Virus record (IMG/VR): IMGVR_UViG_3300009788_000005
Coordinates: 1-64,000 of that record
Direction: 5' to 3' (one strand)
Source: a virus
Length of the DNA: 64,000 nucleotides
The notes beneath the pieces are model-generated. The model was given only the letters and a program-made list of their open reading frames with translations, was not told the DNA's origin and did not search any database. The translations under genes were made by a program, and so were the position numbers. Shown in pieces: positions 481 to 61,148 of this stretch (its first letter is position 1; the number at the start of each line of letters is the position of its first letter).

Positions 481-495
481 TGTAAAAATTTTACA
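481..495 (-). repeat. palindrome copy 1, promoter-distal
   Basis: TGTAAAAATTTTACA, lying upstream of the promoter of gene 88-420 rather than next to a start codon. The GGTG flank faces away from the gene. Confidence 0.9.
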
Positions 496-513
496 GATTT
501 AGCAGTAATACCT

Positions 514-849
514 CTAATCAATTAAAGCATAATACATACTCTGTATGTGGGATAACCCGAAAGATATGCCTTTATAATACTTCACTACCTGATAGAAATG
601 TTCAAGTAATGATAGATCCTCCTGCTGCTCATCTGTAAACTCTGATAGATCAGGTACAGTATATTCCTTCTTACCTACAATACCTCCTCCCATAGCCCCT
701 ACTATCATACCTCCCGATCGTTTGCCCTGTCCCCTCTTCCTAGGTCCCCAATCGATTGTGTAGGTTCTCATAGGGATAACCGGATTAGGAATCTTATCTA
801 TCCTCTCCCGGTTATCATTTATATGATGTTTATCTTCCTGGGTAATCAT
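514..849 (-). CDS. hypothetical protein
   Basis: 111 residues, not recognised. The middle (about 40-62) is rich in Gly, Lys and Arg, with the segment GGMIVGAMGGGIVGKK resembling a short glycine-zipper hydrophobic stretch; the C-terminal third is predicted helical. It ends in TAG, 10 nt in front of the next transcription unit's upstream palindrome, and lies 10 nt downstream of gene 860-1105, with which it is probably co-transcribed. Confidence 0.6.
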   Translation of the reverse strand: MITQEDKHHINDNRERIDKIPNPVIPMRTYTIDWGPRKRGQGKRSGGMIVGAMGGGIVGKKEYTVPDLSEFTDEQQEDLSLLEHFYQVVKYYKGISFGLSHIQSMYYALID

Positions 850-859
850 TACCGTAGTA

Positions 860-1105
860 TCAATTACTTAATACTTCACTATAGGAGTAGGGAAATCTTT
901 CTGATTTTATTATGTTAAACTTACTTTCCCCTAACCAACTATACAAAGATCTACGTATGCGCACTAAAGAATTATGCTCCTTATTATATAGATCTTGTAG
1001 AGTATTTTCTTTATAATTATCTACGTTTAAAAACTGACTAGTACGAGTTTCAACTACAATAGCCATATCTTTAATTACCTGCTGAGTAGAGTATTTATAC
1101 TTCAT
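860..1105 (-). CDS. hypothetical protein
   Basis: 81 residues with alternating charged and aromatic helices; not recognised. The ATG at 1105 follows a short leader from a phage-type promoter at 1128-1147, whose -7 box is a variant (TATCTCTG). First gene of a two-gene unit with 514-849. Confidence 0.6.
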   Translation of the reverse strand: MKYKYSTQQVIKDMAIVVETRTSQFLNVDNYKENTLQDLYNKEHNSLVRIRRSLYSWLGESKFNIIKSERFPYSYSEVLSN

Positions 1106-1127
1106 AATCTTTTCGTTTAAGTATATC

Positions 1128-1147
1128 CAGAGATAAGGTAAGGTTAT
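1128..1147 (-). promoter_or_regulatory. phage-type promoter of gene 860-1105
   Basis: The minus strand reads ATAACCTTACCTTATCTCTG, matching the extended CCTTACCTTATCTTTG element with one change in the -7 box. The palindrome at 1164-1178 is centred 39.5 bp upstream of the box centre. Confidence 0.7.
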
Positions 1148-1163
1148 GAGAATTCCTAATAGG

Positions 1164-1178
1164 TGTAAAATTTTTACA
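1164..1178 (-). repeat. palindrome copy 2, promoter-distal
   Basis: Abuts the TAG stop of the HNH gene (1179-1181) and lies upstream of the promoter of gene 860-1105. GGTG flank faces away from that gene. Confidence 0.9.
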
Positions 1179-1595
1179 CTATCTAGCCATATCCTCTACT
1201 GTCTTTTCCTTGTGACACTCTATACATAACGTCTGATATCCCTTCAAGGTACATCCTCCCCCTCCCTTATAAACGGGTATTATATGATCTGCCTGCCACC
1301 CCTTAGGATCTTCTACAGTTATATGACACTTAGCACATACTCCTTTATCCCTATACAATAACTGATCCCTAATAACCCGGATATCCCCCCATATAATACA
1401 TCTGTAGATATAAGCATTTCGCCTGCATACGTTATCTGTCCACCTAGTACGTCTACCTATAAGTATGGTACCACACCCACAAGCACACCTACCATCAGTC
1501 CTATAAGGAAAAATATCAGAAACACTCAACTGCTTCTGATATCTACTGTAAGGATCTATTGCACCCTTACGTATTAACTCTTCTCTGCTAACCAT
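1179..1595 (-). CDS. HNH endonuclease
   Basis: 138 residues. A first Cys cluster (CACGCG near residue 38) is followed by a classical HNH core: CAKC near residue 87, then WQADHIIPVYKGG and CIECHKEKT at the C-terminus. The DH pair supplies the metal/general-base residues and the four Cys bind structural zinc. HNH proteins of this size in phages act as free-standing homing endonucleases or as nicking nucleases associated with packaging; nothing here decides between them, and no large terminase is adjacent. Confidence 0.85.
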   Translation of the reverse strand: MVSREELIRKGAIDPYSRYQKQLSVSDIFPYRTDGRCACGCGTILIGRRTRWTDNVCRRNAYIYRCIIWGDIRVIRDQLLYRDKGVCAKCHITVEDPKGWQADHIIPVYKGGGGCTLKGYQTLCIECHKEKTVEDMAR

Positions 1596-1830: not shown

Positions 1831-1845
1831 TGTAAAATTTTTACA
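1831..1845 (-). repeat. palindrome copy 3, start-proximal
   Basis: Three nucleotides upstream of the ATG at 1827. The coding strand reads AAAGGTG immediately before the palindrome. Confidence 0.9.
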
Positions 1846-2841: not shown

Positions 2842-2856
2842 TGTAAAAATTTTACA
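2842..2856 (-). repeat. palindrome copy 4, promoter-distal
   Basis: Lies between the stop of gene 2860-3255 and the promoter of gene 2359-2805. Confidence 0.9.
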
Positions 2857-2859: not shown

Positions 2860-3255
2860 CTAACCAAAAATAAACAACGCCAACAAAAATATCAATACCC
2901 ATATAAGACATCCTCTATTGCCTGTACCCCATCTAGGTAATGTCTGATCACTACCCCTATATATACTATTATGATTCTGCCTACCTACCTGATCCGTATC
3001 ATCTCCTTTTCCTGAAAAATGTCTGTGATCCTCATTAGTAACTCCTACATACTGATGAGCATGCTCATCCACTGACTTAACCATTTGTAAAGTAAATACA
3101 TGTGAGTATAACTTATACGAGTTGGCTAACCTATCCTCCTGCTCATCTACATCCTTACACCCCTCATCCTTATAAGCCTGCTCTATCTTCTCCCTCTGCT
3201 TAATCCATCTCTCCAGGCTATTCTTAATAATCATTACCTTTTTATCCTCAGCCAT
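2860..3255 (-). CDS. tail-anchored small membrane protein
   Basis: 131 residues. Charged, helical N-terminal two thirds, a His-rich patch in the middle (HAHQYVGV, EDHRHFSG) and a single hydrophobic segment at the extreme C-terminus (CLIWVLIFLLALFIFG). This is the layout of a tail-anchored inner-membrane protein with its bulk in the cytoplasm. Family not recognised. Palindrome copy 5 is 4 nt upstream of the ATG and a hairpin terminator (3295-3323) separates it from the upstream gene. Confidence 0.65.
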   Translation of the reverse strand: MAEDKKVMIIKNSLERWIKQREKIEQAYKDEGCKDVDEQEDRLANSYKLYSHVFTLQMVKSVDEHAHQYVGVTNEDHRHFSGKGDDTDQVGRQNHNSIYRGSDQTLPRWGTGNRGCLIWVLIFLLALFIFG

Positions 3256-3259: not shown

Positions 3260-3274
3260 TGTAAAATTTTTACA
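3260..3274 (-). repeat. palindrome copy 5, start-proximal
   Basis: Four nucleotides upstream of the ATG at 3255 and just downstream of a terminator hairpin, an arrangement suggesting that a new transcript starts here. Confidence 0.9.
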
Positions 3275-3294: not shown

Positions 3295-3323
3295 GGGGAG
3301 GAAAGCTTGCCGCCAACCTCCCC
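3295..3323 (-). terminator. hairpin terminator after gene 3343-3813
   Basis: GGGGAGG (3295-3301) pairs with CCTCCCC (3317-3323). On the minus strand it is followed by TTTCTTGTTT, a weak intrinsic-terminator tail. Confidence 0.6.
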
Positions 3324-4391: not shown

Positions 4392-4406
4392 TGTAAAAAT
4401 TTTACA
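4392..4406 (-). repeat. palindrome copy 6, start-proximal
   Basis: Nine nucleotides upstream of the ATG at 4382, with AGGTG on the coding side and a strong terminator hairpin (4425-4450) directly upstream. Confidence 0.9.
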
Positions 4407-4424: not shown

Positions 4425-4450
4425 ATAGGGCATATTAAAGTATGCCCTAT
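4425..4450 (-). terminator. intrinsic terminator after gene 4480-4599
   Basis: Perfect 10-bp stem ATAGGGCATA / TATGCCCTAT with a 6-nt loop; on the minus strand it is followed by TTTATTTATATTT. Immediately followed by palindrome copy 6. Confidence 0.75.
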
Positions 4451-7064: not shown

Positions 7065-7511
7065 CTACCAAAGATCCGATAATAACCAATACCCTACCTC
7101 ACACTCGTCCTCAGGTATATTAAACTCTTTAATAAATTCCTCTAACTCTTCCCTACAATCCTTAGCTTTAATTATCTCATCCAGGTCTAATAGCATAGGA
7201 TCATTCCAATCACCATCAGCTAATACTCTTCCCCGCATAGTAACAACTATATCAGGCTCCTCATCACCTCCACCACTAGCCTGCTCATAGGGACAAGGGT
7301 TATCTTCATTCCACTTACCTACCTTATCAAAGTACTCTGATTCATCATCATCTCCCTTACCCTCTATAAGCTCCCCCTCTACATAAGGACTCTCAATATC
7401 CATACCGTGTTTCTCCTGCCACCACTCCTCAAGATTATCCCCTTCCCAAGGAAGATACTCAGCATCAACTTTTATTCCATATACAAAAACACTTCTCGGA
7501 TCATGTCCCAT
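7065..7511 (-). CDS. hypothetical acidic protein
   Basis: 148 residues, very acidic (EGDNLEEWWQEKHG, GDDDESEYFDK, ASGGGDEEPD). Such composition can reflect DNA mimicry, but nothing else supports that and it is only a possibility. Palindrome copy 7 lies 28 nt upstream of the ATG, the same spacing as at the capsid and protease genes. First gene of the 7511-6024 run. Confidence 0.55.
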   Translation of the reverse strand: MGHDPRSVFVYGIKVDAEYLPWEGDNLEEWWQEKHGMDIESPYVEGELIEGKGDDDESEYFDKVGKWNEDNPCPYEQASGGGDEEPDIVVTMRGRVLADGDWNDPMLLDLDEIIKAKDCREELEEFIKEFNIPEDECEVGYWLLSDLW

Positions 7512-7539: not shown

Positions 7540-7554
7540 TGTAAAATTTTTACA
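7540..7554 (-). repeat. palindrome copy 7, start-proximal (28 nt)
   Basis: Twenty-eight nucleotides upstream of the ATG at 7511 and overlapping the terminal TAA of the shifted frame at 7550. Confidence 0.9.
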
Positions 7555-8287: not shown

Positions 8288-8302
8288 TGTAAAATTTTTA
8301 CA
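8288..8302 (-). repeat. palindrome copy 8, promoter-distal
   Basis: Lies between the stop of the zinc-ribbon gene (8305) and the promoter of gene 7949-8206. Confidence 0.9.
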
Positions 8303-8480: not shown

Positions 8481-8495
8481 TGTAAAATTTTTACA
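8481..8495 (-). repeat. palindrome copy 9, start-proximal
   Basis: Eight nucleotides upstream of the ATG at 8472, overlapping the last codons of gene 8491-8709. Coding-side flank is GAGGGTG. Confidence 0.9.
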
Positions 8496-8709: not shown

Positions 8710-8966
8710 ACTATGGGCTCCTCATAATAGTATACTACAGAACTATACCCTTCTGCTACTATCTCTCCGTTATCTACAAATTTCATAAATCCGGGTAATA
8801 GATACATTATAACCTCTACGTTATCCCTATCTATACATATCTCCTCCAAAACTACTATAGGCTCCTGCTCAACCCCTATAAGCCACTGTCTTTGAGGTAA
8901 GCCTACTAATCTAAATTTCTTATCTCCTATACTAAGTACTTTACCTAACAAATCTTCAATAATCAT
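8706..8966 (-). CDS. hypothetical protein
   Basis: 86 residues, predicted beta-rich (KFRLVGLPQRQWLIGVEQ, VVYYYEEPIV). Coupled by ATGA overlaps to both the upstream triple-HTH gene and the downstream gene. Not recognised. Confidence 0.55.
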   Translation of the reverse strand: MIIEDLLGKVLSIGDKKFRLVGLPQRQWLIGVEQEPIVVLEEICIDRDNVEVIMYLLPGFMKFVDNGEIVAEGYSSVVYYYEEPIV

Positions 8967-10246
8967 ATCTTAAAATCCTCTTCTTTAGTTTCCTTACCCT
9001 TGCTTTTCTTAATAGTCTTCTTACCTGTAGGAAGATCATCATCCCGGATAATATCCTCTATCTCCTCCATCACTTCCGACTCCCCTACATCTAAGTCTCC
9101 TAATATACTACTTCTAAACTTATTTCTCTTAGCCCTAAGTTTCTTAATCTTCTTAGTATCCTTCTTCTCTACCTCCTCTACCTTCTGGGCATCTGTAGTA
9201 TGTAGGTGTAAATGTTTACCCTCTATCTGTACTGTATCAGTAGGAGCAGTCCCAGTTAACTTATCCACATACTGCAAGGTAGGTAAGTCTACCTCTAACT
9301 TATCTATCTCTAGTCTCTGCTTATGTATATCGATTGCTATAGGTGTTTTGCTTATCATATTACCTTCCTCATCATACTCAATCTCAAAAGCTATACGCTG
9401 ATCTATAGACTCTACCTGCTTATGCGTTGTACGCTGCTGCATACGGTACTTAAGAGCTTGCCTACTCAATTCCATCAACTCATGTATGTCATTTATACGA
9501 GCTAATCTAATCATCTCTACACGCTTTATTTTCACCTCTTCCCACATACTCTCTAACCTATCATAAAAAGTAGATAAGGCATAGTAAAAGCTTCCCTCTG
9601 CTATACCTACCTTAAAACAGCAATTAGCTAATGTTAAAAATCCTGTCTCATGGCGATATAATTGCTCACCCTGTAAGCTAACTACTGTAGGTATCTTAAC
9701 CGTAGTATACTCAGTATAATACTTACATACCCTAGCAAATGATCTTATTATATTACGTTCTGATTCCTGACTACGAGGCTTACGCTCAAATTCTTTATTT
9801 ATAGCCTTAGCCATAATACCGCATACATCCCACTCACTCTCTAATCCTAAGCTCTCCACCCAATTATAAAAAGATTCTTTAGGTATTTTCTGATCCTTAC
9901 ATAGATCAACTAAAGTTTTATCAGTGTAGGCGTATCCATCCATTATATCAGTAACCTTCTGTCTTTTAGTAGCCTCTGAATACCTCTTAGTTCTTTTGTT
10001 TATTTTCTTAGCTGACGGTGCCTGCCTAGTTAACTTCTCATATACCTTCTCATACTTCTCTTTAATCTTCTCAAACCCATCCCTCTTTAACCAAAAATTA
10101 AATTGTCTCTGACTGATACCATTAAGGTCTATAATATCTTTCAGAGACTTATCAGGATGTTTAGGTATGTCTGCACATATCTTTAGGCATATAGCCTTTC
10201 TCTCTACATCACTTGAAAATTTATGCGTTCGTTTTTTCTTATCCAT
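8963..10246 (-). CDS. triple helix-turn-helix protein, small-terminase-like
   Basis: 427 residues. Three related HTH units are visible: SLKDIIDLNGISQRQFNFWL near residue 35, TLVDLCKDQKIPKESFYNWV near 110 and TLANCCFKVGIAEGSFYYAL near 205. Each has the pattern 'L..(C)..xxIxxxSFYxWL' of phage small terminase subunits. A C-terminal segment (HKQRLEIDKLEVDLPTLQYV) resembles the oligomerisation region of such subunits, then comes a Lys/Glu-rich tail. Against this, it is larger than most small terminases and no large terminase is adjacent, so it could instead be a transcriptional regulator. Palindrome copy 10 is 7 nt upstream. Confidence 0.55.
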   Translation of the reverse strand: MDKKKRTHKFSSDVERKAICLKICADIPKHPDKSLKDIIDLNGISQRQFNFWLKRDGFEKIKEKYEKVYEKLTRQAPSAKKINKRTKRYSEATKRQKVTDIMDGYAYTDKTLVDLCKDQKIPKESFYNWVESLGLESEWDVCGIMAKAINKEFERKPRSQESERNIIRSFARVCKYYTEYTTVKIPTVVSLQGEQLYRHETGFLTLANCCFKVGIAEGSFYYALSTFYDRLESMWEEVKIKRVEMIRLARINDIHELMELSRQALKYRMQQRTTHKQVESIDQRIAFEIEYDEEGNMISKTPIAIDIHKQRLEIDKLEVDLPTLQYVDKLTGTAPTDTVQIEGKHLHLHTTDAQKVEEVEKKDTKKIKKLRAKRNKFRSSILGDLDVGESEVMEEIEDIIRDDDLPTGKKTIKKSKGKETKEEDFKI

Positions 10247-10253: not shown

Positions 10254-10268
10254 TGTAAAAATTTTACA
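10254..10268 (-). repeat. palindrome copy 10, start-proximal
   Basis: Seven nucleotides upstream of the ATG at 10246 of the triple-HTH gene. Confidence 0.9.
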
Positions 10269-12695: not shown

Positions 12696-12710
12696 TGTAA
12701 AATTTTTACA
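12696..12710 (-). repeat. palindrome copy 11, start-proximal
   Basis: Thirteen nucleotides upstream of the ATG at 12682. Confidence 0.9.
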
Positions 12711-12724: not shown

Positions 12725-13258
12725 TTATTTATATACAATTTCACCATTATCAAAATCAAATAACTTTTTATCATCCGATACTTCACCACACAATTCCTTA
12801 CGAGTAGCAGGCCCATAATCTACATACTCCTTCCAAGAAACCCATCCCAACTTAGTCATAAATCCCCACTTACGCTTAGGCCAAAACATAATAACCAAAG
12901 TCTTAACCGGCTTTATTTGGTGCTGAGGTAGCTGTACTCTATGCAGGCACTTAGCAGATCTATAGACTATAGATCCTGTACTCCTAGTATATACTACCGG
13001 ATATACTACATCCTTCCTTTTCCTATATTCAAAATATTCCCCAGACATAACAAAGGATATGAAAGACCAAGGATGATCATGCAAACACCTATCCTTATCA
13101 CTTCGTAATATCCAATGTATACATATAGAAAATAGGGGAGTCTTAAGTATTGTAAGTCTTTTTAGATAAGGATCTCCATCTATATTTATAATCTCTCTAC
13201 CCCAAATACCCCACCTCTTATACCAAGGATTTTTATTTATAGTTTGGTCTTGTTTCAT
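12725..13258 (-). CDS. cupin-like protein with HDHPW motif
   Basis: 177 residues from the ATG at 13258. The block CLHDHPWSFISFVMSGEYFEY carries the HxHPW...GxYxE arrangement of a cupin metal site, and CLHRVQLP supplies the second cupin His. Such proteins recur in tailed phages; some cupins modify nucleotides or sugars, but the substrate here is unknown. The start is chosen because a TACCTTTA box precedes it by 3 nt; ATGs at 13309 and 13330 would add residues overlapping the upstream gene. Confidence 0.6.
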   Translation of the reverse strand: MKQDQTINKNPWYKRWGIWGREIINIDGDPYLKRLTILKTPLFSICIHWILRSDKDRCLHDHPWSFISFVMSGEYFEYRKRKDVVYPVVYTRSTGSIVYRSAKCLHRVQLPQHQIKPVKTLVIMFWPKRKWGFMTKLGWVSWKEYVDYGPATRKELCGEVSDDKKLFDFDNGEIVYK

Positions 13259-13261
13259 AGT

Positions 13262-13269
13262 TAAAGGTA
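13262..13269 (-). promoter_or_regulatory. -7-like box before the cupin start
   Basis: The minus strand reads TACCTTTA-ACT-ATG, the same spacing as at 2809-2816 and at the full-match leaderless genes. It lies within the open frame's upstream extension, so it could be coincidence. Confidence 0.35.
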
Positions 13270-13287
13270 CAAAAACTTTCCCTTTAA

Positions 13288-13539
13288 CTAAAACCCCGGT
13301 ACCCATATACCGGAATACAACCAACCCCATACTATTACTCCATCTTTCCTAGCTACTACTCTATTTTCAATATCTTCATTAGCAAACAAACAACATTCCT
13401 CAGCAGACCCCTCTAGCAATATGTGTAGCCTCCACCTGTTAACTACGTAAACAGGCTTATATCTGTCTACCCCCGCAATAGTTAATCCAACATCCTTAGC
13501 CTGCCTATCTAGTACATAATATTTATAAAAGGCAATCAA
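13288..13539 (-). CDS. hypothetical protein with TTG start
   Basis: 83 residues. No in-frame ATG exists before the middle of the protein and a stop lies directly upstream, so the start is probably the TTG at 13539, 2 nt after the upstream TAA. Contains GSAEECCLF and a C-terminal Trp-rich segment (VIVWGWLYSGIWVPGF). Not recognised. Confidence 0.5.
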   Translation of the reverse strand: MIAFYKYYVLDRQAKDVGLTIAGVDRYKPVYVVNRWRLHILLEGSAEECCLFANEDIENRVVARKDGVIVWGWLYSGIWVPGF

Positions 13540-14076: not shown

Positions 14077-14091
14077 TGTAAAAATTTTACA
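14077..14091 (-). repeat. palindrome copy 12, start-proximal
   Basis: Three nucleotides upstream of the ATG at 14073; coding-side flank AGGGGTG. Confidence 0.9.
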
Positions 14092-17106: not shown

Positions 17107-17121
17107 TGTAAAAATTTTACA
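17107..17121 (-). repeat. palindrome copy 13, promoter-distal
   Basis: Upstream of the helicase promoter, between the helicase and gene 17128-17496. Confidence 0.9.
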
Positions 17122-18402: not shown

Positions 18403-18410
18403 CAAATATG
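18403..18410 (-). promoter_or_regulatory. -7-like box of the RusA gene (leaderless)
   Basis: The minus strand reads CATATTTG-TAT-ATG, off by one base at position 1 from TAnnTTTG. It overlaps palindrome copy 14 by two bases. Confidence 0.4.
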
Positions 18411-18423
18411 TAAAAATTTTACA
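18409..18423. repeat. palindrome copy 14, shared by divergent genes
   Basis: Nine nucleotides upstream of the RusA ATG on the minus strand and centred 51.5 bp upstream of the -7 box of the only plus-strand gene. Confidence 0.9.
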
Positions 18424-18451
18424 TCCTATACCCAAATAATTAGGATATATC

Positions 18452-18471
18452 AAAACCTTACCTTATCTTTG
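18452..18471 (+). promoter_or_regulatory. phage-type promoter of gene 18494-18943
   Basis: AAAACCTTACCTTATCTTTG, identical to the element at 443-462, followed by GATATAACCAAACG and an AT-rich leader to the ATG at 18494. Confidence 0.8.
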
Positions 18472-18493
18472 GATATAACCAAACGAAAATAAA

Positions 18494-18958: not shown

Positions 18959-18973
18959 TGTAAAACTTTTACA
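18959..18973. repeat. palindrome copy 15, in a convergent gap
   Basis: TGTAAAACTTTTACA. Its centre base is C rather than A/T and it lies between two convergent stop codons, the only copy not upstream of any gene. Confidence 0.9.
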
Positions 18974-19597: not shown

Positions 19598-22500
19598 CTA
19601 TTTAATTAACCTGGAGGGCATAGTTTCCCCTCCCTCTATTCGTAGCACATCAGCATAAAACATATCCATAACAGGACTGTGAGTAATAACATGAGTATTA
19701 ATCTTCTCCCTGTCTTTTAGAAAGATCCTGGATACTTGATGTATAGTATCTACATCTAATTGGCTATAGGGTTCATCAAATAACTGTAAGTCTATATCTA
19801 CCCTATCTCTCCACAGTCTGCCAAGACTCTTTGCCAGTAACAAATTAGCAATTACTAATTGACCGTCACTCGCATTACTGGCTAACCTCTCCCGTCCCTG
19901 AATCATTAAAGAACATTCAAATTTATTAGAGTCATCCACAAAAAATCTAAAGCTAGTACCTATCTCAGCAGCGTACTCTGAAGCGTATCTATTAATTCTA
20001 CCTAGCTTCAGGTTTATAATAAACTTCTTAAGACCTTTTACCCCACATATACGGGAAGTTACATATCTTAAAGCCTCTAGTCTATGAGTTAAAATTTTAG
20101 TTTTCTTATCATGTATCTTAGATTCTTTTTTTATAGCAGTAATCTCCTTCTCTATCTTAATACTATCAGACTTATCCGGCTTACTTTTTTGCTCTATACC
20201 TAATTGATCTCTTTGAGTAGTTAGTATACCTATAAACCTACCCTTATCCTCCTTTGCACCTAATATATTAGCCACGATACTTTCCTTATCCGAACATAAC
20301 TTATCCTGAGAATCATATAGTAATAGGGCAGTATTGTACGCCCTAGCTATCTCTTCATACTCCTGCTTATAATCCTCTACTGCCTTATGACAAATAATTA
20401 CATTAGCCTCAAGACCCTCTAATACCTTAGCACACTCCTCTTTAAAATCCCTCTCATATCCCTCTTCATACACCTCAAAAATTTTTAACCCTTCCTCTAG
20501 GGATACTATTTGTAATTCCCTCTCCTTCTGCTCATCCTCTAATTTAGCATATTCCTTAGTAACACGATCTAATACATCCTTAATCCTATCCCTATTAACA
20601 AGTATATCATGACCCTTCTTTAAGACTGTCTCACATGTAGGACAATTATCCCCTATGTGATCATACTCAGACTTTTTAAGAACAATATTATTATATAATC
20701 TACCCAATTCTCTACATACTTCCTTCTGTTTTGAGACACTAGTAAAAACCTGATATTTTTGTCTCGCTAGGTCGTCCTTTACCTGTAAAAATTTTACAGA
20801 TTTTTCAGGATAGTACTCATCACAATTTACTAATTTCCTTTTAGCACTCTTAACCTGTTCCTGTAAATCATATTTCCTATCCTTAGCGGATACAAATTTT
20901 TCCTTCTCAGAGGATATATCTATCTCCTTTATAACCAGGTTTTGTAACTGCTGCTCATATACCTCTATCTCCTTAATAATATCCTGTAAAAGATTATCGT
21001 TAGTATCTATCTTCGATTTTAACTCCTCTACCTTAACCTGCTTATCCTCTTCAAACTTACTTAGTTTAGCCTCCTCACTTTTTAGCCTAACCGATAATGA
21101 AGCTAACCTATTATTAATATCAGATTTTACATTTATTGATGTATCATATTTCTCCGATACCTCTTCTATCTCCTCCTTAGCTAACTCTTTCAAATCGTCT
21201 ACCCATACCACCCCTAATAAAGGTTCTAATATCTTCCTCTTTTCTGCCTCCTTAGCAGATATTAGCCGGCACTTATCAGGAGAGAAGTAAACCGTATTCA
21301 GAATCATATCCATAGTAAACCCATTAAACTTTAACCATGAATTTGTTTTTTGGGTTTTAGTATTAAACTCCTCATCCTCTACTCCTAAATCTTCAGCAGT
21401 TACGATACTCTCGTTCTTATAAATTACAAAGGAATCTTTACCCCTTAAGCCGTTAGTATCCCCCTTAAAATTGATATGCCGGATAACAGTATACTTTATC
21501 CCGTCTACATATTTTACAACCATAACCCTAGTACCTCTCCAGTCTCTACCCATCTCTCTTATCCAAGGTTCTGATACTACATCGTCAACCTTAGACCCTT
21601 CTCGTATAGGAGTTCCGCACTCAGCCCATATAAGAGCCTCAAAAATACTAGTCTTACCACTACCCTTAGGAGCCTGTATATACTGTATCTTATTAGTTCT
21701 AAAGTCATATGTAACCGGATCAACCCAGGACCTAAACCCCTCTATAGTTATAGACTCATACTTAATTACTTTGGTAGACTTAGCTACAGCATCCGGTATA
21801 CCTAATAATAAATAACCAAACTCTACTCCTACCCCCTCAGGTAATCCTCCTGAAATAGTTTCAACATACCAATTGAATAAGTCCAACCTACCCTCCTCTA
21901 CCGTATCATCAAAATCCTCCTCTACCTGCACCTCATAAGTAGGTCTTTCTTTACGTATAATATAATTACCTACATCCTCATCCCGTACATCCTCATCCTG
22001 ATAATAATCAACAAATTCAGGAAACCCTTCATGGGGTATAAACTCAACCTCTTCCCCTACTATATATATCCCGTTTGGTCCTGACCCTTTATCTGTTCCT
22101 TTCTGCTGTAGGAAATTTCCACAGTTATAAAAATTACCGTGCTGACTCTTATTAATTATATGCCCGTTAAACACATACATAAACTCCCCAAAAATATCAT
22201 CATCCTCTTTGATAGTTGACCCAGGTACAGAAGATATAGTATCCTGGTGCATCAAAAGTATAGTTGTATCAGGATTAACTTGCATATCCAACATAACTTT
22301 TAAAGCATCTTTAAAATGTTCCTCATGCCGATAGAAAGGTAATCCTACTACAATACCTACAGAGGTATCCACAGTATAACCATCAAGTATATAAAAATTA
22401 TCACATGCCAAAGCTAAAGCATGTAAAACATGTGAATCCTTTTTAATACTACTAACTAACCCTCCCTCAGGATCATCATGATTACCCGTAATAGTATTAG

Positions 22501-22744: not shown

Positions 22745-22759
22745 TGTAAAATTTTTACA
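22745..22759 (-). repeat. palindrome copy 17, start-proximal
   Basis: Nine nucleotides upstream of the ATG at 22735; coding-side flank ATAGGTG. Confidence 0.9.
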
Positions 22760-23909: not shown

Positions 23910-24422
23910 CTAACCCATTCTTTCTATTCTCTCATTAGCATTAATAGACCTAGCAGTATTCCAAGCCAAATCTACTATATTATAACTAGACCTTAACCTG
24001 TTTAGTGTTTGACTAACATTCAATATATTAGATCTTGAATTCTTTACCTCAGTTAATACAGACAACATAGAAATAACTAATTTATCTGTAGGCATTTCGT
24101 TAGCCCTAGACTTAGATAAGTCATCTCTCCCTATCATATCCTCCATCCTCATGGTCTTAAATTGTACATACTGCTCGTTTACTATATCCAACTCCATCCT
24201 ATTCAATTCATCTACAGCCCTTTCATAGTACAACACTAACCCCGATAAAAAAGACATAGTAGATAGAAAATCCATCATTCTTTCCTCTGTACCGTAACTC
24301 TGCAAATCAGCTAATATAGTATTATCGATAGTAACCGTACCTACTCTACCTCCATATTCTACAGCTACCTCATATACCTGTAAAAATTTTACATCTACTC
24401 CCTCTATATATATCCCTTTCAT
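23910..24422 (-). CDS. hypothetical protein downstream of DNA polymerase
   Basis: 170 residues from the ATG at 24422, which overlaps the polymerase stop (ATGA). Mostly helical after residue 40; not recognised. Palindrome copy 18 falls inside its first 25 codons (DVKFLQV), so the copy is not in front of the start here. Probably translated from the polymerase mRNA. Confidence 0.6.
   Translation of the reverse strand: MKGIYIEGVDVKFLQVYEVAVEYGGRVGTVTIDNTILADLQSYGTEERMMDFLSTMSFLSGLVLYYERAVDELNRMELDIVNEQYVQFKTMRMEDMIGRDDLSKSRANEMPTDKLVISMLSVLTEVKNSRSNILNVSQTLNRLRSSYNIVDLAWNTARSINANERIERMG
24379..24393 (-). repeat. palindrome copy 18, inside a gene near its start
   Basis: Lies about 30 nt downstream of the ATG at 24422. 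Confidence 0.85.
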
Positions 24423-27962: not shown

Positions 27963-27977
27963 TGTAAAATTTTTACA
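27963..27977 (-). repeat. palindrome copy 19, start-proximal
   Basis: Three nucleotides upstream of the ATG at 27959; coding-side flank AGAGGTG. Confidence 0.9.
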
Positions 27978-29998: not shown

Positions 29999-30964
29999 TT
30001 AGAATTTATTAATTTTAGGTATTGATTTCTTCTTACTCTTTACTTCCTTCTTTACTTTATCCCTGTATTCTATGTACCTATCTATAGCACCCGGTCCGCA
30101 CAAATAACCAAGCTCTATATCAATATTTCTCTGACCCGAAAAATTATTATTGTAAACTAATAACTGAGATTCTATCCATAAAGGTATATACTTTTCACTA
30201 GCTTTAGCTGAGGAGTCTTTAGCCGTAGATCTAGCCTCCATCAACAATTCAAAAGCTATTAAAAACTTATACCTATACTTTATATTATTACTAAATATAT
30301 CCGTAGACCTATCCGTAATTTTCATAAAAACACCGATCATACTTAAAGTATAGTCCTTATACTTATCATGAGCTACCTTATAATATTCACTCAATATAGA
30401 TCCTGCCTCAGATTGTACATTAGCATCTAAATACGCCTTAATAGAAAACTTCCTTTTGTTACGTAATAACGGAGTAACTATATCAATATATACCTTATAA
30501 AACTCTACCCTGTTTTTAGCAGTATTGGTAGGTCCTATATCCTTCCAGATATCCTCTACTACTTTCCATAAAGATATTAGATCATTATAAGCAGCCGTAC
30601 CTACTACAAACCTCTTAATAAAAGATCTATCCTGCTTCAGTATAACTACCCTAGCCTCATAAACAATATCATTTAATATCTCCACATAATGCTTAGGAGC
30701 TTTAGATACCCTCTTTAATATCTCCGCCTTAGATACTTTACCCTTACCACTAATTTGTATAGTAATTAAATCATCAGGTATAGTTGCATAACCTTCAGAT
30801 TTCTTTGCCAACTCTTTAACAAATCTTTCTACCTGGGTAGGTGTAAAATTTTTACACGCCTTAATCATTGCAGCCTGTACAGATTTCTCCTGTAGTATCA
30901 ACTTAATAGTAGCCTCAACAGTCAATATTACTACAGGATTCTTATCTGATTTACTAACAGTCAT
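29999..30964 (-). CDS. hypothetical replication-module protein
   Basis: 321 residues, helical, basic at both ends with a Lys-rich C-terminus (KKEVKSKKKSIPKINKF). Lies between primase and SF2 helicase, so a role in replication is likely by context only. Palindrome copy 20 lies inside it and encodes CKNFT near residue 38. Confidence 0.55.
   Translation of the reverse strand: MTVSKSDKNPVVILTVEATIKLILQEKSVQAAMIKACKNFTPTQVERFVKELAKKSEGYATIPDDLITIQISGKGKVSKAEILKRVSKAPKHYVEILNDIVYEARVVILKQDRSFIKRFVVGTAAYNDLISLWKVVEDIWKDIGPTNTAKNRVEFYKVYIDIVTPLLRNKRKFSIKAYLDANVQSEAGSILSEYYKVAHDKYKDYTLSMIGVFMKITDRSTDIFSNNIKYRYKFLIAFELLMEARSTAKDSSAKASEKYIPLWIESQLLVYNNNFSGQRNIDIELGYLCGPGAIDRYIEYRDKVKKEVKSKKKSIPKINKF
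30842..30856 (-). repeat. palindrome copy 20, inside gene 29999-30964
   Basis: Flanked by GGTG on the plus strand side and about 110 nt downstream of the ATG at 30964; no internal ATG follows closely. Confidence 0.85.
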
Positions 30965-32209: not shown

Positions 32210-32224
32210 TGTAAAATTTTTACA
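32210..32224 (-). repeat. palindrome copy 21, start-proximal
   Basis: Three nucleotides upstream of the ATG at 32206; coding-side flank AGGGGGTG. Confidence 0.9.
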
Positions 32225-33047: not shown

Positions 33048-34199
33048 TTAACTTACTCCCCCTCCATCAGGATTTTCCTGAAAGTTTGCAGCCATTATAA
33101 GGGCATGGGCCATTTCTTCCGCTGAGTGTGACTGCACTTGAGCATCCATCATAACCTGCACAATATCATCTACAAGTCCCCCTTTAAACCGCTTACCGAA
33201 AGGAACATCTTTCTTTTGCCTTTCTACCGTAGATTGTTCATCCTGGATCATATTTACCAGATTACCGCACTCCTCTGCAAAGCTGTAACGCTTTTTAGTT
33301 GTAGGGGTTGCAGCAGCTTCTACATGCTTAGCAGTAACTTTAATTTTACCTTCTCCAGCAGCTTTTTCCTGAGCAACCTTAGCAATCTCAGCAGCAGATT
33401 GTTTTTCTCCTTCTTCCTGAGCAAGTACAGCAGCCTTAGAGGCAGCAGCCAAACTCAACCAACCCTCCTCAATACCTTTAAGCAATTTCTTATCCCGTCC
33501 TGCACGGAGATAATAATGTACTGCCGTCCTACCCATACCTACCTGCTTAGCAATATCCACTACAGACATACCAAGATCATCTTCCAACTTAGCCAAGTTC
33601 ACACACTTCTGATAATTTGACCACTGCTCATGAGTATTATTACTTACTTGCCGGAGTAATAGCATTGCTTCCCCCTCAGGACCTACAGGCTTTTCTACAA
33701 TCTGTACCGCAATCAAATTCTTATCCGCATCACTTCCAGGCCAAACAGCCATCTTAAGTATCACACCTGCCTCATCCTTAATAGTCCCCTTCATGATTTC
33801 ATCAAAGCCATACAGACGACGGAAACCTTCAACAAGCTTAAGCTTAAACTGATTATTACCCCTGGCTTTTATATCCGTAACATAAGCCTCTACGGCAGTA
33901 GTCTGACCATTAACCCCCAAAGATCGTACCCACTCAGTAGGAGTAGTTTTCTTTACCTCATTCTTACCTCCTCTTGGATTATCATTATAAGATACGATAA
34001 TCTGAGCGCGAGGTATCAAAATAATCATACCCGGCTGAGGTTTTTCAGGTAAACCTACAGTAAGTAATCCCACAATAGGGGTATCCTTCTTAGCGGGAGA
34101 TTCTTTGGCAGCTCCATTACCTTTGGAATTCTTAGCAATATTCTTTGCTACACCCTTAGTAGCGGGTTTTTCTTTTGTAGATGTTTCAACTTTTACCAT
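33048..34199 (-). CDS. ParB/Spo0J-like DNA-binding protein
   Basis: 383 residues. N-terminal basic Ala/Lys linker, then a ParB-type domain: IILIPRAQIIVSYNDNPRGG, FKLKLVEGFRRLYGF (ParB box II-like GxRR), and a central HTH (MSVVDIAKQVGMGRTAVHYYL, near 215-235) followed by LSLAAASKAAVLA. The C-terminal third is helical. In plasmids ParB binds palindromic parS sites and spreads; phage relatives act in partition, nuclease activity or transcription. It has its own promoter and terminator, i.e. is a separate transcription unit, and is the best candidate here to recognise the TGTAAAA-N-TTTTACA palindrome, though nothing shows this directly. Confidence 0.7.
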   Translation of the reverse strand: MVKVETSTKEKPATKGVAKNIAKNSKGNGAAKESPAKKDTPIVGLLTVGLPEKPQPGMIILIPRAQIIVSYNDNPRGGKNEVKKTTPTEWVRSLGVNGQTTAVEAYVTDIKARGNNQFKLKLVEGFRRLYGFDEIMKGTIKDEAGVILKMAVWPGSDADKNLIAVQIVEKPVGPEGEAMLLLRQVSNNTHEQWSNYQKCVNLAKLEDDLGMSVVDIAKQVGMGRTAVHYYLRAGRDKKLLKGIEEGWLSLAAASKAAVLAQEEGEKQSAAEIAKVAQEKAAGEGKIKVTAKHVEAAATPTTKKRYSFAEECGNLVNMIQDEQSTVERQKKDVPFGKRFKGGLVDDIVQVMMDAQVQSHSAEEMAHALIMAANFQENPDGGGVS

Positions 34200-34291: not shown

Positions 34292-34306
34292 CGTAAAATT
34301 TTTACA
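34292..34306 (-). repeat. palindrome copy 22 (one mismatch), promoter-distal
   Basis: CGTAAAATTTTTACA, directly downstream of the DnaB-like gene stop and upstream of the ParB-like promoter. If the ParB-like protein binds the palindrome, this copy could be autoregulatory. Confidence 0.85.
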
Positions 34307-36892: not shown

Positions 36893-36907
36893 TGTAAAAA
36901 TTTTACA
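36893..36907 (-). repeat. palindrome copy 23, promoter-distal
   Basis: Ends 4 nt into the stop region of gene 36903-37484 and lies upstream of the promoter of gene 36505-36837. Confidence 0.9.
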
Positions 36908-40526: not shown

Positions 40527-40541
40527 TGTAAAAATTTTACA
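40527..40541 (-). repeat. palindrome copy 24, start-proximal
   Basis: Seventeen nucleotides upstream of the ATG at 40509. It shares its outermost A with a perfect 14-bp hairpin at 40541-40571. Confidence 0.9.
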
Positions 40542-42115: not shown

Positions 42116-42130
42116 CGTAAAAATTTTACA
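42116..42130 (-). repeat. palindrome copy 25 (one mismatch), start-proximal
   Basis: CGTAAAAATTTTACA, 28 nt upstream of the capsid ATG at 42087; coding-side flank GGGGTGTG. Confidence 0.85.
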
Positions 42131-43704: not shown

Positions 43705-43719
43705 TGTAAAATTTTTACA
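43705..43719 (-). repeat. palindrome copy 26, start-proximal (28 nt)
   Basis: Twenty-eight nucleotides upstream of the protease ATG at 43676. A TATTTTTG box matching TAnnTTTG directly follows it on the coding strand. Confidence 0.9.
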
Positions 43720-49481: not shown

Positions 49482-49496
49482 TGTAAAAATTTTACA
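49482..49496 (-). repeat. palindrome copy 27, start-proximal
   Basis: Eight nucleotides upstream of the tape measure ATG at 49473; coding-side flank GGGGTGTG. Confidence 0.9.
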
Positions 49497-49609: not shown

Positions 49610-50671
49610 TTAATCAGTTATAACCACTATACTATTATACCTGTGACTATCACTAGTAACCATAAGTATATACATACCAGGATCTATATTATCAATAGGT
49701 ATAGAAGTACAGTTATGGCATCTATACTTAACTAAATTATCTGCGATACCATACAAAGTTACCTCATATATATTTAAACTAGTATCCGATATATTAAGAT
49801 TAGATCCCTGCCTGACCGGGTTAGGATATACTACTAAAGGATCAATAACTATTTCCTTCTCTGATCCCACAGTTATAGTAGTAACCATACCACATACCCC
49901 TTTTCTATCAGATATGCAAACATTATCTAAATAGTAATAGCTAATGTTCTTAGAACAGTAACTAGTAATACTATCCCCTGCCTCTATACTAAGTATAGCA
50001 CAAGTATCCACTAACATCTTAACACTAAAAGTATCATTCAAAAAATTACCTACAGAGAACCCTCTGAAGTCTTGATTTGTTATAAAACTATCTGACCACA
50101 TAACCCAGGTAGTATCTACTATAGGCTGCATGTAAGCTACGGTAAATAAATTATCAGTTAATGCAGGATTTATGAATTTATCCACATCATCCACTGATAA
50201 CTTTAATCCTAATCCTGTAGCATATCTTGAGGAGTCCGCAATAGCTACTCGTATACTAAAATAATACTTTACCCCGCTGTGTACATAAGCAGCAGTATCA
50301 TTTAAAAAGTCACCTGTTAGATGAGTCCGGGAATTTAAAGTAGTATCTCCATAAGCAATTATACCCGCATAAGATTCTACTACAGCAGCAGCCCAACTAA
50401 ATTGCATACTATCCGGGTACTGGAACCCAAAACTATTATAAGGTACTCCGGCTACAAACCCATCACACTGATGAAAATACTCAGGCCAAATATACATAAG
50501 ATCGGTGTTAGCCGCATCCCAATTAAATGACTTAATTATTTCATCATGATTGAAAGGACATAAACTCATTTGCTCAAAACTTGGATTCTTAACCAAATTT
50601 GTAGTTAATGATTGAGATACAGAAAAAAGGGGGATTGAAATTAGTAAAATTACCAGTAGTTTTTTTAACAT
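49610..50671 (-). CDS. secreted protein with T9SS C-terminal sorting domain
   Basis: 353 residues. The N-terminus is a lipid-free signal peptide (MLKKLLVILLISIPLF, cleavage near SVSQS). Residues 24-255 form a single domain (LVKNPSFEQMSLCPFN, GVPYNSFGFQYPDSMQF, YHSGVKYYFSIRVAIADSS-like segments, YYYLDNVCIS), a pattern of jellyroll-like surface domains of Bacteroidota. The end (VVYPNPVRQGSNLNIS, then NIDPGMYILMVTSDS) is a type A T9SS sorting domain. So the protein should be exported by the host Sec system and then by T9SS to the cell surface. It is not a known virion protein type; a host-modifying 'moron' gene is likely. Confidence 0.85.
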   Translation of the reverse strand: MLKKLLVILLISIPLFSVSQSLTTNLVKNPSFEQMSLCPFNHDEIIKSFNWDAANTDLMYIWPEYFHQCDGFVAGVPYNSFGFQYPDSMQFSWAAAVVESYAGIIAYGDTTLNSRTHLTGDFLNDTAAYVHSGVKYYFSIRVAIADSSRYATGLGLKLSVDDVDKFINPALTDNLFTVAYMQPIVDTTWVMWSDSFITNQDFRGFSVGNFLNDTFSVKMLVDTCAILSIEAGDSITSYCSKNISYYYLDNVCISDRKGVCGMVTTITVGSEKEIVIDPLVVYPNPVRQGSNLNISDTSLNIYEVTLYGIADNLVKYRCHNCTSIPIDNIDPGMYILMVTSDSHRYNSIVVITD

Positions 50672-52888: not shown

Positions 52889-52903
52889 TGTAAAAATTTT
52901 ACA
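52889..52903 (-). repeat. palindrome copy 28, start-proximal
   Basis: Three nucleotides upstream of the ATG at 52885; coding-side flank AGAGGTG. Confidence 0.9.
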
Positions 52904-55622: not shown

Positions 55623-55637
55623 TGTAAAAATTTTACA
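55623..55637 (-). repeat. palindrome copy 29, start-proximal
   Basis: Four nucleotides upstream of the ATG at 55618. It is the only start-proximal copy whose coding-side flank is ACCTG rather than GGTG. Confidence 0.9.
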
Positions 55638-58510: not shown

Positions 58511-58525
58511 TGTAAAATTTTTACA
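58511..58525 (-). repeat. palindrome copy 30, start-proximal
   Basis: Three nucleotides upstream of the ATG at 58507; coding-side flank TAAGGTG. Confidence 0.9.
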
Positions 58526-59171: not shown

Positions 59172-59442
59172 TAGATTCTGAATTTTTTAGTACTTCCTGT
59201 AATGTAGGATTTATAAATTCAGTAGATAATTTAGTAGGGTATATAGATTCCCCGTATGTTATGGTAGCTACATATATCTTCCCCGTAAACAAAAACTTAA
59301 TCCTCTTCCAAAGCCCCATACTCCAACATATAACTACCCCTTTTTCTATTGTAGCGATATCTTTAAAAGCGGGTACAGGTTTCATACCTACTTTACCCGC
59401 ACCATATACCGTATTTTGCTGCTTAAATTTTATCGGTTTCAT
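59164..59442 (-). CDS. hypothetical protein
   Basis: 92 residues, predicted beta barrel or small fold (VVICWSMGLWKRIKFLFTG). Not recognised. The region before its ATG contains GGGTGTAAAATTATTAACATG, which keeps only the left half of the palindrome. Confidence 0.5.
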   Translation of the reverse strand: MKPIKFKQQNTVYGAGKVGMKPVPAFKDIATIEKGVVICWSMGLWKRIKFLFTGKIYVATITYGESIYPTKLSTEFINPTLQEVLKNSESNE

Positions 59443-59516
59443 GTTAATAATTTTACACCCTAAAAATACAAAAAATGTACCGAGCTACAATATCACCATA
59501 ACCGATAAATAAAATA

Positions 59517-60194
59517 CTAACCATTAACAAATATCTTTCCTACACTACTTACATAAACCTCCTTAAATACAGGAATAGAATATATCAAATTAAAATATAA
59601 CTTCTTCCTAAAACACTGCTCATAAGTATCTGACATTATACGTCCTATATCCCCGTATTCTTTTTGTCGTATCCCTACCCATATAGCAGCCTGTATATCC
59701 CTTGGATAAGCATCTATGCATATACAATAATTACGTATGCTGTATTCTATCTCAGAGTATTGTTTATCTGACACCGAAAAATATTCTTTACCCTTATAAA
59801 TTCGAGGTTTTAATCCAAAAGCTTTAGCAATCCACATATCTACTACTACAGCCTGCTCATCTCCAAACATAGCCCTCCTAAAAGATTCTATTTTTCTACC
59901 TCCTAACTCTTCAAAATTAACCGCTCTTACTACCTGAGGTACCATAGCAGGTAAGAAATCAGGATCATCATTTTCCCCTAAAATATTTACCCCCTCCTGA
60001 ATCCTCCTTAGTACTTTCAAAGTTAATGTTACATTGCTTTGTATAGTTGATCTCTGACTAGTAGCGGCTAACAACCAAATAACTATTACCCAATCATCCC
60101 CAAATAATTTCTTAATAAATTTCAAATTAGATTCATACCAACTTTTATGGTTAGACCCTAATTTAATATACTCCTTTATATCTCGCGTAATCAT
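59517..60194 (-). CDS. HhH-GPD-like / DUF7178-type protein
   Basis: 225 residues. LLAATSQRSTIQSNVTLTLK, GRKIESFRRAMFGDEQAVV and VVDMWIAKAFG, then DIQAAIWVGI, follow the layout of phage proteins related to helix-hairpin-helix glycosylases: an N-terminal helix, a 'GRKxxSFRxAMFG' hairpin and an Asp in the VDxW position. Family membership is from memory and unproven; enzyme activity cannot be claimed. Palindrome copy 31 is 1 nt upstream. Confidence 0.55.
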   Translation of the reverse strand: MITRDIKEYIKLGSNHKSWYESNLKFIKKLFGDDWVIVIWLLAATSQRSTIQSNVTLTLKVLRRIQEGVNILGENDDPDFLPAMVPQVVRAVNFEELGGRKIESFRRAMFGDEQAVVVDMWIAKAFGLKPRIYKGKEYFSVSDKQYSEIEYSIRNYCICIDAYPRDIQAAIWVGIRQKEYGDIGRIMSDTYEQCFRKKLYFNLIYSIPVFKEVYVSSVGKIFVNG

Positions 60195-60195
60195 T

Positions 60196-60210
60196 TGTAA
60201 AAATTTTACA
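60196..60210 (-). repeat. palindrome copy 31, start-proximal
   Basis: One nucleotide upstream of the ATG at 60194, the closest of all copies. Confidence 0.9.
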
Positions 60211-60899
60211 CATAGTAAGTAAATAATTTCTCTAGCCTATGATCATAATTTTCACCTTTTTTATTTATAGTGGTTTGATGATTTATTTCTCTAACACACT
60301 CAAAATCTTCAGGAGCATTATACTCAGATACATAAACTCTATGCCCTTCCTTAGCTCTTTCCCTACACCATACCCAAAAAGATTTATGATCAAAAGGATA
60401 TGCATAACCTAAAACACCCTCATAGGGTTTATCACAATAAATAATACTATTAGAGGGTATGACCAACCCTCTATAATCTCCCGCATAAAATTGTACTCCT
60501 TCTAAATTGTTTGCTTGTCTTAATAAATTATCTCTACCCTCCCTGGAATAATTTCTACGATCATCCTTAGCATAACCTCCCCACCACTTACCCCCGAAGG
60601 AGCATAAAAAAACCTACAAATCCTACTAGATGATTAAGGTAATTACCCTTATTACTTTTAATAGAGTAGTACTCCCCTCTAGAAACATCTGTAGGGGGTA
60701 CCCAACCATCTCTAACAGCTATAAGTAAAGCTATAAGGTACATATGATTATCATTACCTATCCTATTCCCCGTAACCTTATCGATCATATTAGCACCTCC
60801 TACAAAAGGCTCTACATAATATTGATTGTGTCTACGACCTAATAAAATTATCCGTAATAACTCTTTAGCTAATCTGTTCTTACTCCCTACGTACTTCAT
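60206..60899 (-). pseudogene. Dam-like N6-adenine methyltransferase, frameshifted
   Basis: The start (MKYVGSKNRLAKELL, EPFVGGANMID) and the end (VIPSNSIIYCDKPYEGVLG) together form a D12-class methyltransferase: motif X, motif I and a DKPY variant of motif IV (DPPY). The first frame (60588-60899) ends in MLLRG shortly after a T7 run (60606-60612). Removing one T joins it to a second frame (CSFGGKWWGGYAKDDRR...) that continues to the stop at 60206. As written the gene cannot make a full enzyme. Mutation, sequencing error in the homopolymer, or recoding are possible. Confidence 0.8.
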
Positions 60900-61126
60900 A
60901 TATCTGTAAAATTTTTACACATCTCTTCAATTTCTCCCCACTCTCTCAACTCTTCCGAAAATATTTCCCCTGCCTGTTGTAGGGTTATTAACCCCTCATC
61001 AAAAGCCCTCTTAAAATCCTCCTCACTCAATTCATCATCCTCTTTACGTGCATAGTAACAGCACTCCTTAGCAGCATCTTTAATAGATGCTATAACTAAT
61101 TCTAATAAATCATAATCAGATCTCAT
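60896..61126 (-). CDS. hypothetical acidic protein
   Basis: 76 residues, acidic and helical (DDELSEEDFKRAFDEGLI). Its last residues (CKNFTDI) are encoded by palindrome copy 32, and its stop overlaps the methyltransferase start (ATGA). Function unknown. Confidence 0.55.
   Translation of the reverse strand: MRSDYDLLELVIASIKDAAKECCYYARKEDDELSEEDFKRAFDEGLITLQQAGEIFSEELREWGEIEEMCKNFTDI
60905..60919 (-). repeat. palindrome copy 32, start-proximal, inside an upstream gene
   Basis: Five nucleotides upstream of the methyltransferase ATG at 60899 but within the coding end of gene 60896-61126. Confidence 0.9.
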
Positions 61127-61133
61127 ACCTACT

Positions 61134-61148
61134 TGTAAAATTTTTACA
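61134..61148 (-). repeat. palindrome copy 33, start-proximal
   Basis: Seven nucleotides upstream of the ATG at 61126. Confidence 0.9.

What the first reader, a model, noticed from the sequence alone, without database searches (positions are those of the whole stretch)
481..61148. A 15-bp palindrome, TGTAAAA-N-TTTTACA, occurs 33 times and marks gene starts
Thirty-one copies have exact arms and two (34292-34306, 42116-42130) have one change. Twenty-two lie 1-28 nt upstream of a start codon, seven (plus the shared copy 14) lie upstream of a promoter box, three are inside genes and one is between convergent genes. Copies follow terminators at 3295-3323, 4425-4450 and 40541-40571, which suggests new transcripts start at or near them. 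It looks like a phage-wide regulon site. This is a direct observation; the function is inference. It cannot fold into a stable RNA hairpin beyond 6-7 AT-rich pairs with almost no loop, so a protein-DNA site seems more likely than an RNA structure.
Basis: partly seen in the sequence, partly recalled or inferred. Interest (0 to 1): 0.92.

Follow-up and report, generated by a model that had tools for sequence, protein, structure and literature searches.

The report
Phage-wide 15-bp palindrome operator regulon
A virus of Bacteroidota-type bacteria carries 45 perfect copies of one 15-letter DNA palindrome, set between its genes and just upstream of its promoters, which looks like a genome-wide landing pad for one phage-made regulatory protein; similar unexplained repeats exist in a few other phages, and this case makes their function testable.

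Summary
The window holds 31 exact copies plus 4 with one change; the whole 85.6-kb record (circular by its end repeat) holds 45 exact, 4 one-change and 1 two-change copies, against 0, 0.05 and 1.4 expected. 41 of 45 lie between genes (p about 1e-37), more evenly spaced than random gene starts. Three settings recur: (i) 4-6 bp (or exactly 16 bp) upstream of a TTAGG-19bp-TAnnTTTG promoter, seven cases; (ii) about 29 within 1-41 nt 5' of a start codon, ten of them at exactly 3 nt; (iii) unit boundaries, including both ends of two inverted single-gene cassettes and 13-20 nt after four of seven predicted terminators. Host Bacteroidota genomes and public phage contigs show no enrichment, so it is phage-specific. 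Best reading: operators of a phage-encoded dimeric DNA-binding protein that sets transcription of units genome-wide. The binder is unknown; an orphan ParB-like protein (KorB-like logic) is the leading candidate but was not confirmed. The nearest precedent, the Cluster O mycobacteriophage repeats, is also of unknown function. RNA structure is a weaker rival. No relative sharing the motif was found, so conservation is untested.

The parts
481..495 (.). palindrome, promoter type
   Evidence: exact; TTAGG box 6 bp downstream on - strand, then 19 bp to TATCTTTG
443..474 (-). promoter TTAGG(474-470)-19 bp-TATCTTTG(450-443) for gene 88-420
1164..1178 (.). palindrome, promoter type; TTAGG 4 bp downstream, TATCTCTG at 1135-1128
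1831..1845 (.). palindrome; ATG of 1597-1827 3 nt after it; upstream stop TAA inside it
2842..2856 (.). palindrome, 9 nt (TTG) or 36 nt (ATG) 5' of gene 2359-2832
3260..3274 (.). palindrome 20 nt after terminator T-run start, 4 nt 5' of ATG of 2860-3255
4392..4406 (.). palindrome 19 nt after terminator T-run start, 9 nt 5' of ATG
7540..7554 (.). palindrome 28 nt 5' of ATG of 7065-7511
8288..8302 (.). palindrome, promoter type; TATCTTTG at 8237-8230
8481..8495 (.). palindrome 8 nt 5' of ATG (8472); upstream stop inside it
10254..10268 (.). palindrome 7 nt 5' of ATG of the HTH protein 8963-10246
12696..12710 (.). palindrome 13 nt 5' of ATG (1 nt 5' of a TTG)
14077..14091 (.). palindrome 3 nt 5' of ATG of 13855-14073
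17107..17121 (.). palindrome upstream of TATCTTTG (17080-17073) and of the helicase gene's likely ATG (17069)
18409..18423 (.). palindrome shared by divergent units: 16 bp 5' of TTAGG of the + promoter and 9 nt 5' of a - strand ATG
18440..18471 (+). promoter TTAGG-19 bp-TATCTTTG for + gene 18494-18943
18959..18973 (.). palindrome between convergent genes (end of the + cassette)
20784..20798 (.). palindrome inside SbcC-like gene
22745..22759 (.). palindrome 13 nt after terminator T-run start, 9 nt 5' of likely ATG of the SbcC-like gene
24379..24393 (.). palindrome inside gene 23910-24455
27963..27977 (.). palindrome 3 nt 5' of ATG
30842..30856 (.). palindrome inside gene 29999-30964
32210..32224 (.). 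palindrome 3 nt 5' of ATG of a 68-aa ORF
34292..34306 (.). palindrome, one change, promoter type; TACCTTTG at 34252-34245, upstream of the ParB-like gene
36893..36907 (.). palindrome upstream of TATCTTTG (36848-36841); upstream stop inside it
40527..40541 (.). palindrome next to a hairpin, 17 nt 5' of ATG
42116..42130 (.). palindrome, one change, 28 nt 5' of ATG
43705..43719 (.). palindrome 28 nt 5' of ATG
49482..49496 (.). palindrome 8 nt 5' of GTG of the tape-measure gene
52889..52903 (.). palindrome 3 nt 5' of ATG
55623..55637 (.). palindrome 4 nt 5' of ATG
58511..58525 (.). palindrome 3 nt 5' of ATG; upstream stop inside it
60196..60210 (.). palindrome 1 nt 5' of ATG; upstream stop inside it
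60905..60919 (.). palindrome 5 nt 5' of ATG, within the last codons of the upstream gene
61134..61148 (.). palindrome 7 nt 5' of ATG
33048..34199 (-). ParB-like protein (383 aa), leading candidate binder, not shown to bind
   Evidence: phrog_1033 E=5e-12; HTH_ParB E=0.032, below cut-off
8963..10246 (-). HTH-type protein (427 aa), second candidate binder
   Evidence: weak HTH_Tnp_1 E=0.0028
61243..62121 (-). winged-helix protein (292 aa), third candidate binder
   Evidence: HTH_24 E=3.4e-5; weak replication-initiator-like match

Best explanation
The palindromes are operators (DNA sites) for one phage-encoded dimeric DNA-binding protein that controls transcription units across the whole genome. 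Next to promoters the dimer sits immediately 5' of the -33-like box and sets initiation by host RNA polymerase. At the other units it sits in the gap between a gene's end and the next start codon, where it most likely acts on read-through transcription, as a roadblock or silencer that holds units apart until it is removed or changes state. Shown here: the sites, their exactness, their positions, their absence from hosts. Inferred: binding by a dimer, that the protein is phage-encoded, the sign of control. The binder is most likely the orphan ParB-like protein (33048-34199) working in the manner of KorB, but this step is weak (about 0.35); the HTH protein 8963-10246 is the next candidate.
For: 45 exact copies against none expected, with almost no decay. 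41/45 intergenic, p=2.5e-37, and spacing CV 0.69 against 1.07 for random gene starts, p=0.0005. Eight of nine ACCTTACCTTATCTTTG-type promoters carry a copy 34-56 nt upstream (p about 1e-11); in seven the layout is palindrome-(4, 6, 6, 6, 6, 16 or 16 bp)-TTAGG-19 bp-TAnnTTTG, so the promoter spacing is fixed and the palindrome is close to it or about one helical turn further. Copies bracket both ends of the two inverted genes 18494-18943 and 64270-64548 and follow four of seven minus-strand terminators at 13-20 nt. The third base out is R on the left and Y on the right in 29/30 start-adjacent sites each, extending the dyad to 21 bp. No phage RNA polymerase, sigma factor, integrase or CI-like repressor was found in the Pfam/PHROGs scans, and the promoter boxes are of the Bacteroidota type (established consensus, own knowledge), so host polymerase is the likely target. 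No excess of the motif in 395 Bacteroidota genomes.
Against: No binding or transcript data. No relative with the same motif, so no conservation test. About 29 start-adjacent copies have no promoter box 5' of them above background, so action on initiation cannot explain most sites. Helical phasing to the -7 box is weak (Rayleigh p about 0.02, n=12; not significant on distinct offsets). The ParB link is not general: a phage with a clear ParB (G010) has no dispersed palindrome, and phages with dispersed palindromes (G001, G008) have no detectable ParB; PF02195 is not met by the window protein.
Confidence: 0.6

Rival explanations
1. An RNA element at translation starts: the palindrome folds into a small hairpin between a purine-rich (SD-like) stretch and the start codon, shortening their distance or acting as a translational operator, like the Start Associated Sequences of Cluster K phages.
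For: Ten copies at exactly 3 nt from ATG. 18 of 29 start-adjacent copies have an SD-like purine 4-mer directly 5' of the palindrome (62% against 15% background), although the other genes of this phage show no SD (13%). The two intergenic one-change variants turn a U-A end pair into U-G, which RNA tolerates.
Against: Hairpin only -1.0 kcal/mol, -1.8 with flanks. Promoter-type copies lie 5' of the promoter, and copies at 18959 and 64554 lie at gene ends. Flanking position 1 is a G.G mismatch in 18 of 31 sites, so the stem cannot extend. No compensatory change in 45 copies.
Confidence: 0.13
2. The palindrome is a core promoter element for host polymerase redirected by a phage factor, with transcription starting in or just after it (short-leader or leaderless mRNAs).
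For: Start codons 1-28 nt downstream; copies 13-20 nt after terminators, leaving about 40 nt for a new start.
Against: Copies 4-6 bp 5' of complete host-type promoters would then be redundant; a perfect dyad is unusual for a directional promoter; no phage RNAP or sigma factor found; copies between convergent genes.
Confidence: 0.12
3. Loading sites of a ParB-type clamp used for DNA condensation, segregation or packaging, without a direct role in gene control.
For: ParB-like gene without ParA; copies spread more evenly than random gene starts; ParB relatives such as Noc and KorB use many dispersed palindromes (own knowledge; KorB in PMC11790492).
Against: Near-fixed spacing to promoters and terminators; ParB and dispersed palindromes do not go together in other phages.
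Confidence: 0.1
4. Boundary sequences kept for homologous exchange of gene cassettes.
For: Two inverted genes are flanked by copies on both sides; recombination at the Cluster O repeats has been inferred (PMC4351075).
Against: 15 bp is short for homologous recombination; exactness, flank R/Y bias and promoter spacing are not explained.
Confidence: 0.03
5. Sites of a host transcription factor hijacked by the phage, as for CtrA in alphaproteobacterial phages (PMC9437464, found).
For: Promoters are host-type.
Against: Bacteroidota genomes do not hold more copies than of the reversed control pattern; GTDB hits with the start-adjacent layout are single and scattered over phyla.
Confidence: 0.02

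Closest known systems
17-bp dyad repeats of Cluster O mycobacteriophages (Corndog, Firecracker): TGTTCGG-N3-CCGAACA, PMC4351075
   Same: Invariant 7-bp inverted arms, 34 copies plus 3 with one change in Corndog; A/T-rich centre; no integrase; a ParB-domain protein and other DNA-binding proteins as candidate binders; absent from host; function unknown. Recounted here: 30 exact copies in 49 kb of Firecracker.
   Different: Different sequence, spacer (3 vs 1) and host. About a third lie in genes and only four near promoters there; here 41/45 are intergenic and 10-12 sit at promoters with near-fixed spacing.
Stoperators of Cluster A mycobacteriophages (L5 repressor), PMC6550527, PMC9283540
   Same: Many copies over the genome; proposed to stop elongation, in addition to repression at promoters.
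   Different: Stoperators are asymmetric 13-bp sites, mostly in one orientation, read by a monomeric repressor; here the site is a dyad and no such repressor or integrase was found.
SPbeta repeated element (SPBRE) bound by MrpR, PMC10516654
   Same: 15-bp dispersed intergenic element in a phage genome, read by one master regulator.
   Different: About ten bound sites, in promoter regions; MrpR is a tyrosine-recombinase-like repressor, none found here.
KorB operators (OB) of plasmid RK2, PMC11790492
   Same: Dispersed palindromes, 4-10 bp upstream of target promoters or far from them; ParB-family reader.
   Different: Other sequence; no KorA partner recognised; the phage protein is only ParB-like and unproven.
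Start Associated Sequences of Cluster K mycobacteriophages, PMC3203893
   Same: Copies 3-7 nt 5' of start codons; upstream stop codon sometimes inside.
   Different: Asymmetric, SD-containing GGGATAGGAGCCC in one orientation; not upstream of promoters.

Membership tests
Cluster O-type dispersed dyad repeat | More than 30 copies of a dyad with invariant 7-bp arms | tested here: met
   45 exact, 4 one-change
Cluster O-type dispersed dyad repeat | Sequence TGTTCGG-N3-CCGAACA | tested here: not met
   TGTAAAA-N-TTTTACA
Cluster O-type dispersed dyad repeat | No integrase or ParA | tested here: met
   None in Pfam/PHROGs scans of the called proteins
Cluster A stoperator | Asymmetric site in one orientation to transcription | tested here: not met
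   Core is a perfect dyad with centre A/T/G 25/21/1; only flanks are directional
Cluster A stoperator | Blocks elongation when the repressor is bound | not testable with these tools
   needs transcription assays
SPBRE/MrpR | Tyrosine-recombinase-like repressor encoded | tested here: not met
   no recombinase family match
ParB/KorB family (for protein 33048-34199) | ParB_N/CTPase domain PF02195 | tested here: not met
   no match at E<=1
ParB/KorB family (for protein 33048-34199) | Overall similarity to phage ParB-like proteins | tested here: met
   phrog_1033 E=5e-12 over residues 60-314
ParB/KorB family (for protein 33048-34199) | ParB HTH domain | tested here: inconclusive
   HTH_ParB 14.8 bits, cut-off 22.6; single-sequence model pLDDT 40, unusable
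KorB-like operator | Operator 4-10 bp upstream of the promoter | tested here: met
   4-6 bp in five promoters, 16 bp in two
Start Associated Sequence | Asymmetric SD-like 13-mer directly 5' of starts | tested here: not met
   dyad core; 10-12 copies upstream of promoters
Host regulon hijack | Motif enriched in host genomes | tested here: not met
   395 Bacteroidota genomes, motif not above reversed control

The most novel reading that the evidence does not exclude
An orphan ParB-like protein, freed from DNA partitioning, loads at 45 evenly spread palindromes and spreads along the phage genome as a clamp that silences or insulates every transcription unit until a switch in infection: a KorB-type, genome-wide control layer in a phage, which might also explain the Cluster O repeats.
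Probability: 0.22. Interest if true: 0.85.

Novelty: new variant of a known kind. Interest (0 to 1): 0.62.

Why it matters
Dispersed, exact palindromes in phage genomes were reported ten years ago in Cluster O mycobacteriophages and left without a function. Here the same kind of element is tied to promoters, terminators and unit ends with near-fixed spacing, in an unrelated phage of Bacteroidota type, so the question 'what do such repeats do' becomes testable with reporters and pull-downs. Four further phages with their own dispersed palindromes suggest a recurrent strategy with fast-changing specificity.

Tried and rejected
Close relatives by TerL, PolA and ParB in IMG/VR and INPHARED: none. 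Motif in IMG/VR, with and without a following ATG: only single chance hits. Motif plus ATG in GTDB genomes: 16 scattered single hits, no kin. Promoter string in IMG/VR: 5 unrelated hits. ParB as a general partner of such palindromes: tested on about a dozen phages and not supported; the ParB_N hits in G002 and G006 look like methyltransferase fusions (read from sequence). Structure prediction of the ParB-like protein: pLDDT 40, not used. Rfam: no match. Upstream promoter boxes for start-adjacent copies: not enriched. Bias towards the start codon within long gaps: 7 against 4.2 expected, not convincing.
Full report
What is there. The motif TGTAAAA-N-TTTTACA occurs 31 times exactly in the window, with 4 one-change and 1 two-change copies; shuffles of the same dinucleotide content give 0.79 on average. 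The window is the first 64,000 bases of an 85,758-base virus record whose ends share a 123-bp direct repeat. The record holds 45 exact copies, 4 with one change and 1 with two, against 0, 0.05 and 1.4 expected, so the sites show almost no decay. Nearly all genes run on the minus strand; two credible ones lie on the plus strand.

Where the copies lie. By their centres 41 of 45 are intergenic although 90% of the genome is coding (p=2.5e-37), and they are more evenly spaced than random gene starts (CV 0.69 against 1.07, p=0.0005). In eight copies the upstream gene's TAA stop falls inside TGTAA. About 29 copies lie 1-41 nt 5' of a start codon, ten at exactly 3 nt. Ten to twelve lie 41-65 nt 5' of a TAnnTTTG box, the -7 box of Bacteroidota promoters (own knowledge). 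Seven of these share one layout: palindrome, 4-6 bp (five cases) or 16 bp (two cases), TTAGG, exactly 19 bp, TAnnTTTG. Eight of nine promoters of the ACCTTACCTTATCTTTG class have a copy just upstream. Two copies lie between convergent genes (18959, 64554); together with 18409 and 64185 they bracket the two plus-strand genes on both sides. Four of seven predicted minus-strand terminators are followed by a copy at 13-20 nt. These facts fit a site that bounds and controls transcription units better than one that only marks start codons.

DNA or RNA. The 15-mer folds with -1.0 kcal/mol only. The bases next to it are G.G in 18 of 31 sites, so the stem does not extend, yet the third base out is purine on the left and pyrimidine on the right in 29 of 30 start-adjacent sites each, as for a dimer touching a 21-bp dyad. 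Against this, start-adjacent copies often have an SD-like purine stretch directly 5' (18 of 29; background 15%), while other genes of the phage show no SD, and the two intergenic variants keep a U-G pair. An added effect on translation therefore stays open.

Who binds. Scans of the called proteins show no integrase, ParA, RNA polymerase, sigma factor or CI-like repressor. Three proteins look able to bind DNA: a ParB-like protein (phrog_1033, E=5e-12), an HTH-type protein and a winged-helix protein. The ParB-like gene has its own promoter with a (one-change) copy upstream. KorB, a ParB-family regulator, uses dispersed operators 4-10 bp or far upstream of promoters, which is the layout seen here. 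But the pairing is not general. G010 has a clear ParB and no such palindrome; G001 and G008 have palindromes and no detectable ParB; G002 and G006 have only what look like ParB_N-methyltransferase fusions. So the binder stays unproven.

Spread. No close relative of TerL, PolA or ParB was found in IMG/VR or INPHARED, and no contig with several copies of the motif. In 395 Bacteroidota genomes the motif is not above the reversed control, so it is neither a host regulon nor a common prophage element. A PolA-based search brought four phages of one distant group that carry other dispersed palindromes: TTTGCAAC-N-GTTGCAAA, TGAAACCRGTTTCA, TGCAATTGATTGCA and TTGAAAAWWTTTTCAA. In each of the four a copy lies shortly 5' of a phrog_17202-family gene. 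The host group is inferred from the promoter boxes, a C-terminal T9SS sorting domain and tape-measure similarity to Cellulophaga, Bacteroides and Flavobacterium phages.

Compared with what is known. The best match in kind is the 17-bp repeat of Cluster O mycobacteriophages: invariant 7-bp arms, 34 copies, no integrase, ParB-domain protein, function unknown (30 copies recounted in Firecracker). Stoperators (asymmetric), SPBRE and SAS each share part of the picture and each fail a defining feature. The finding is filed as a new variant of a known, unexplained kind.

Verdict. An operator regulon read by a phage dimer is the best explanation (0.6); roadblock or silencing at unit boundaries is the favoured action; the ParB-like protein is the favoured reader at about 0.35. 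None of the last three steps is shown.

Noticed in passing
window 49610-50671 (-): A phage protein ends in a type IX secretion C-terminal sorting domain (Por_Secre_tail matched one scanned protein at E=1e-5; the YPNP motif is in this one), next to the tape-measure gene; it points to a Bacteroidota host.
   Followed up: partly
window 60206-60899 (-): A D12-type adenine methyltransferase appears split in two ORFs (60588-60899 N-terminal part; 60206-60466 with CDKPY, probably the C-terminal part), with copies of the palindrome at both ends of the region.
   Followed up: no
   Followed up: partly
window 18409-18973 and record 64185-64568: Two inverted single-gene cassettes with near-identical promoters but unlike genes, each bracketed by palindromes; they look like exchangeable modules.
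   Followed up: partly
start-adjacent copies, e.g. window 14077-14091: SD-like AGGGG directly 5' of the palindrome although the phage's other genes lack SD sequences.
   Followed up: partly
record 66300-66698 (outside the window): Small protein near the terminase gene that probably accounts for the PAS-domain match (PF00989 E=1.4e-5).
   Followed up: no
window 12725-13330 (-): Probable cupin; likely the protein behind the cysteine dioxygenase PHROG match (phrog_4786, E=2.1e-37).
   Followed up: no
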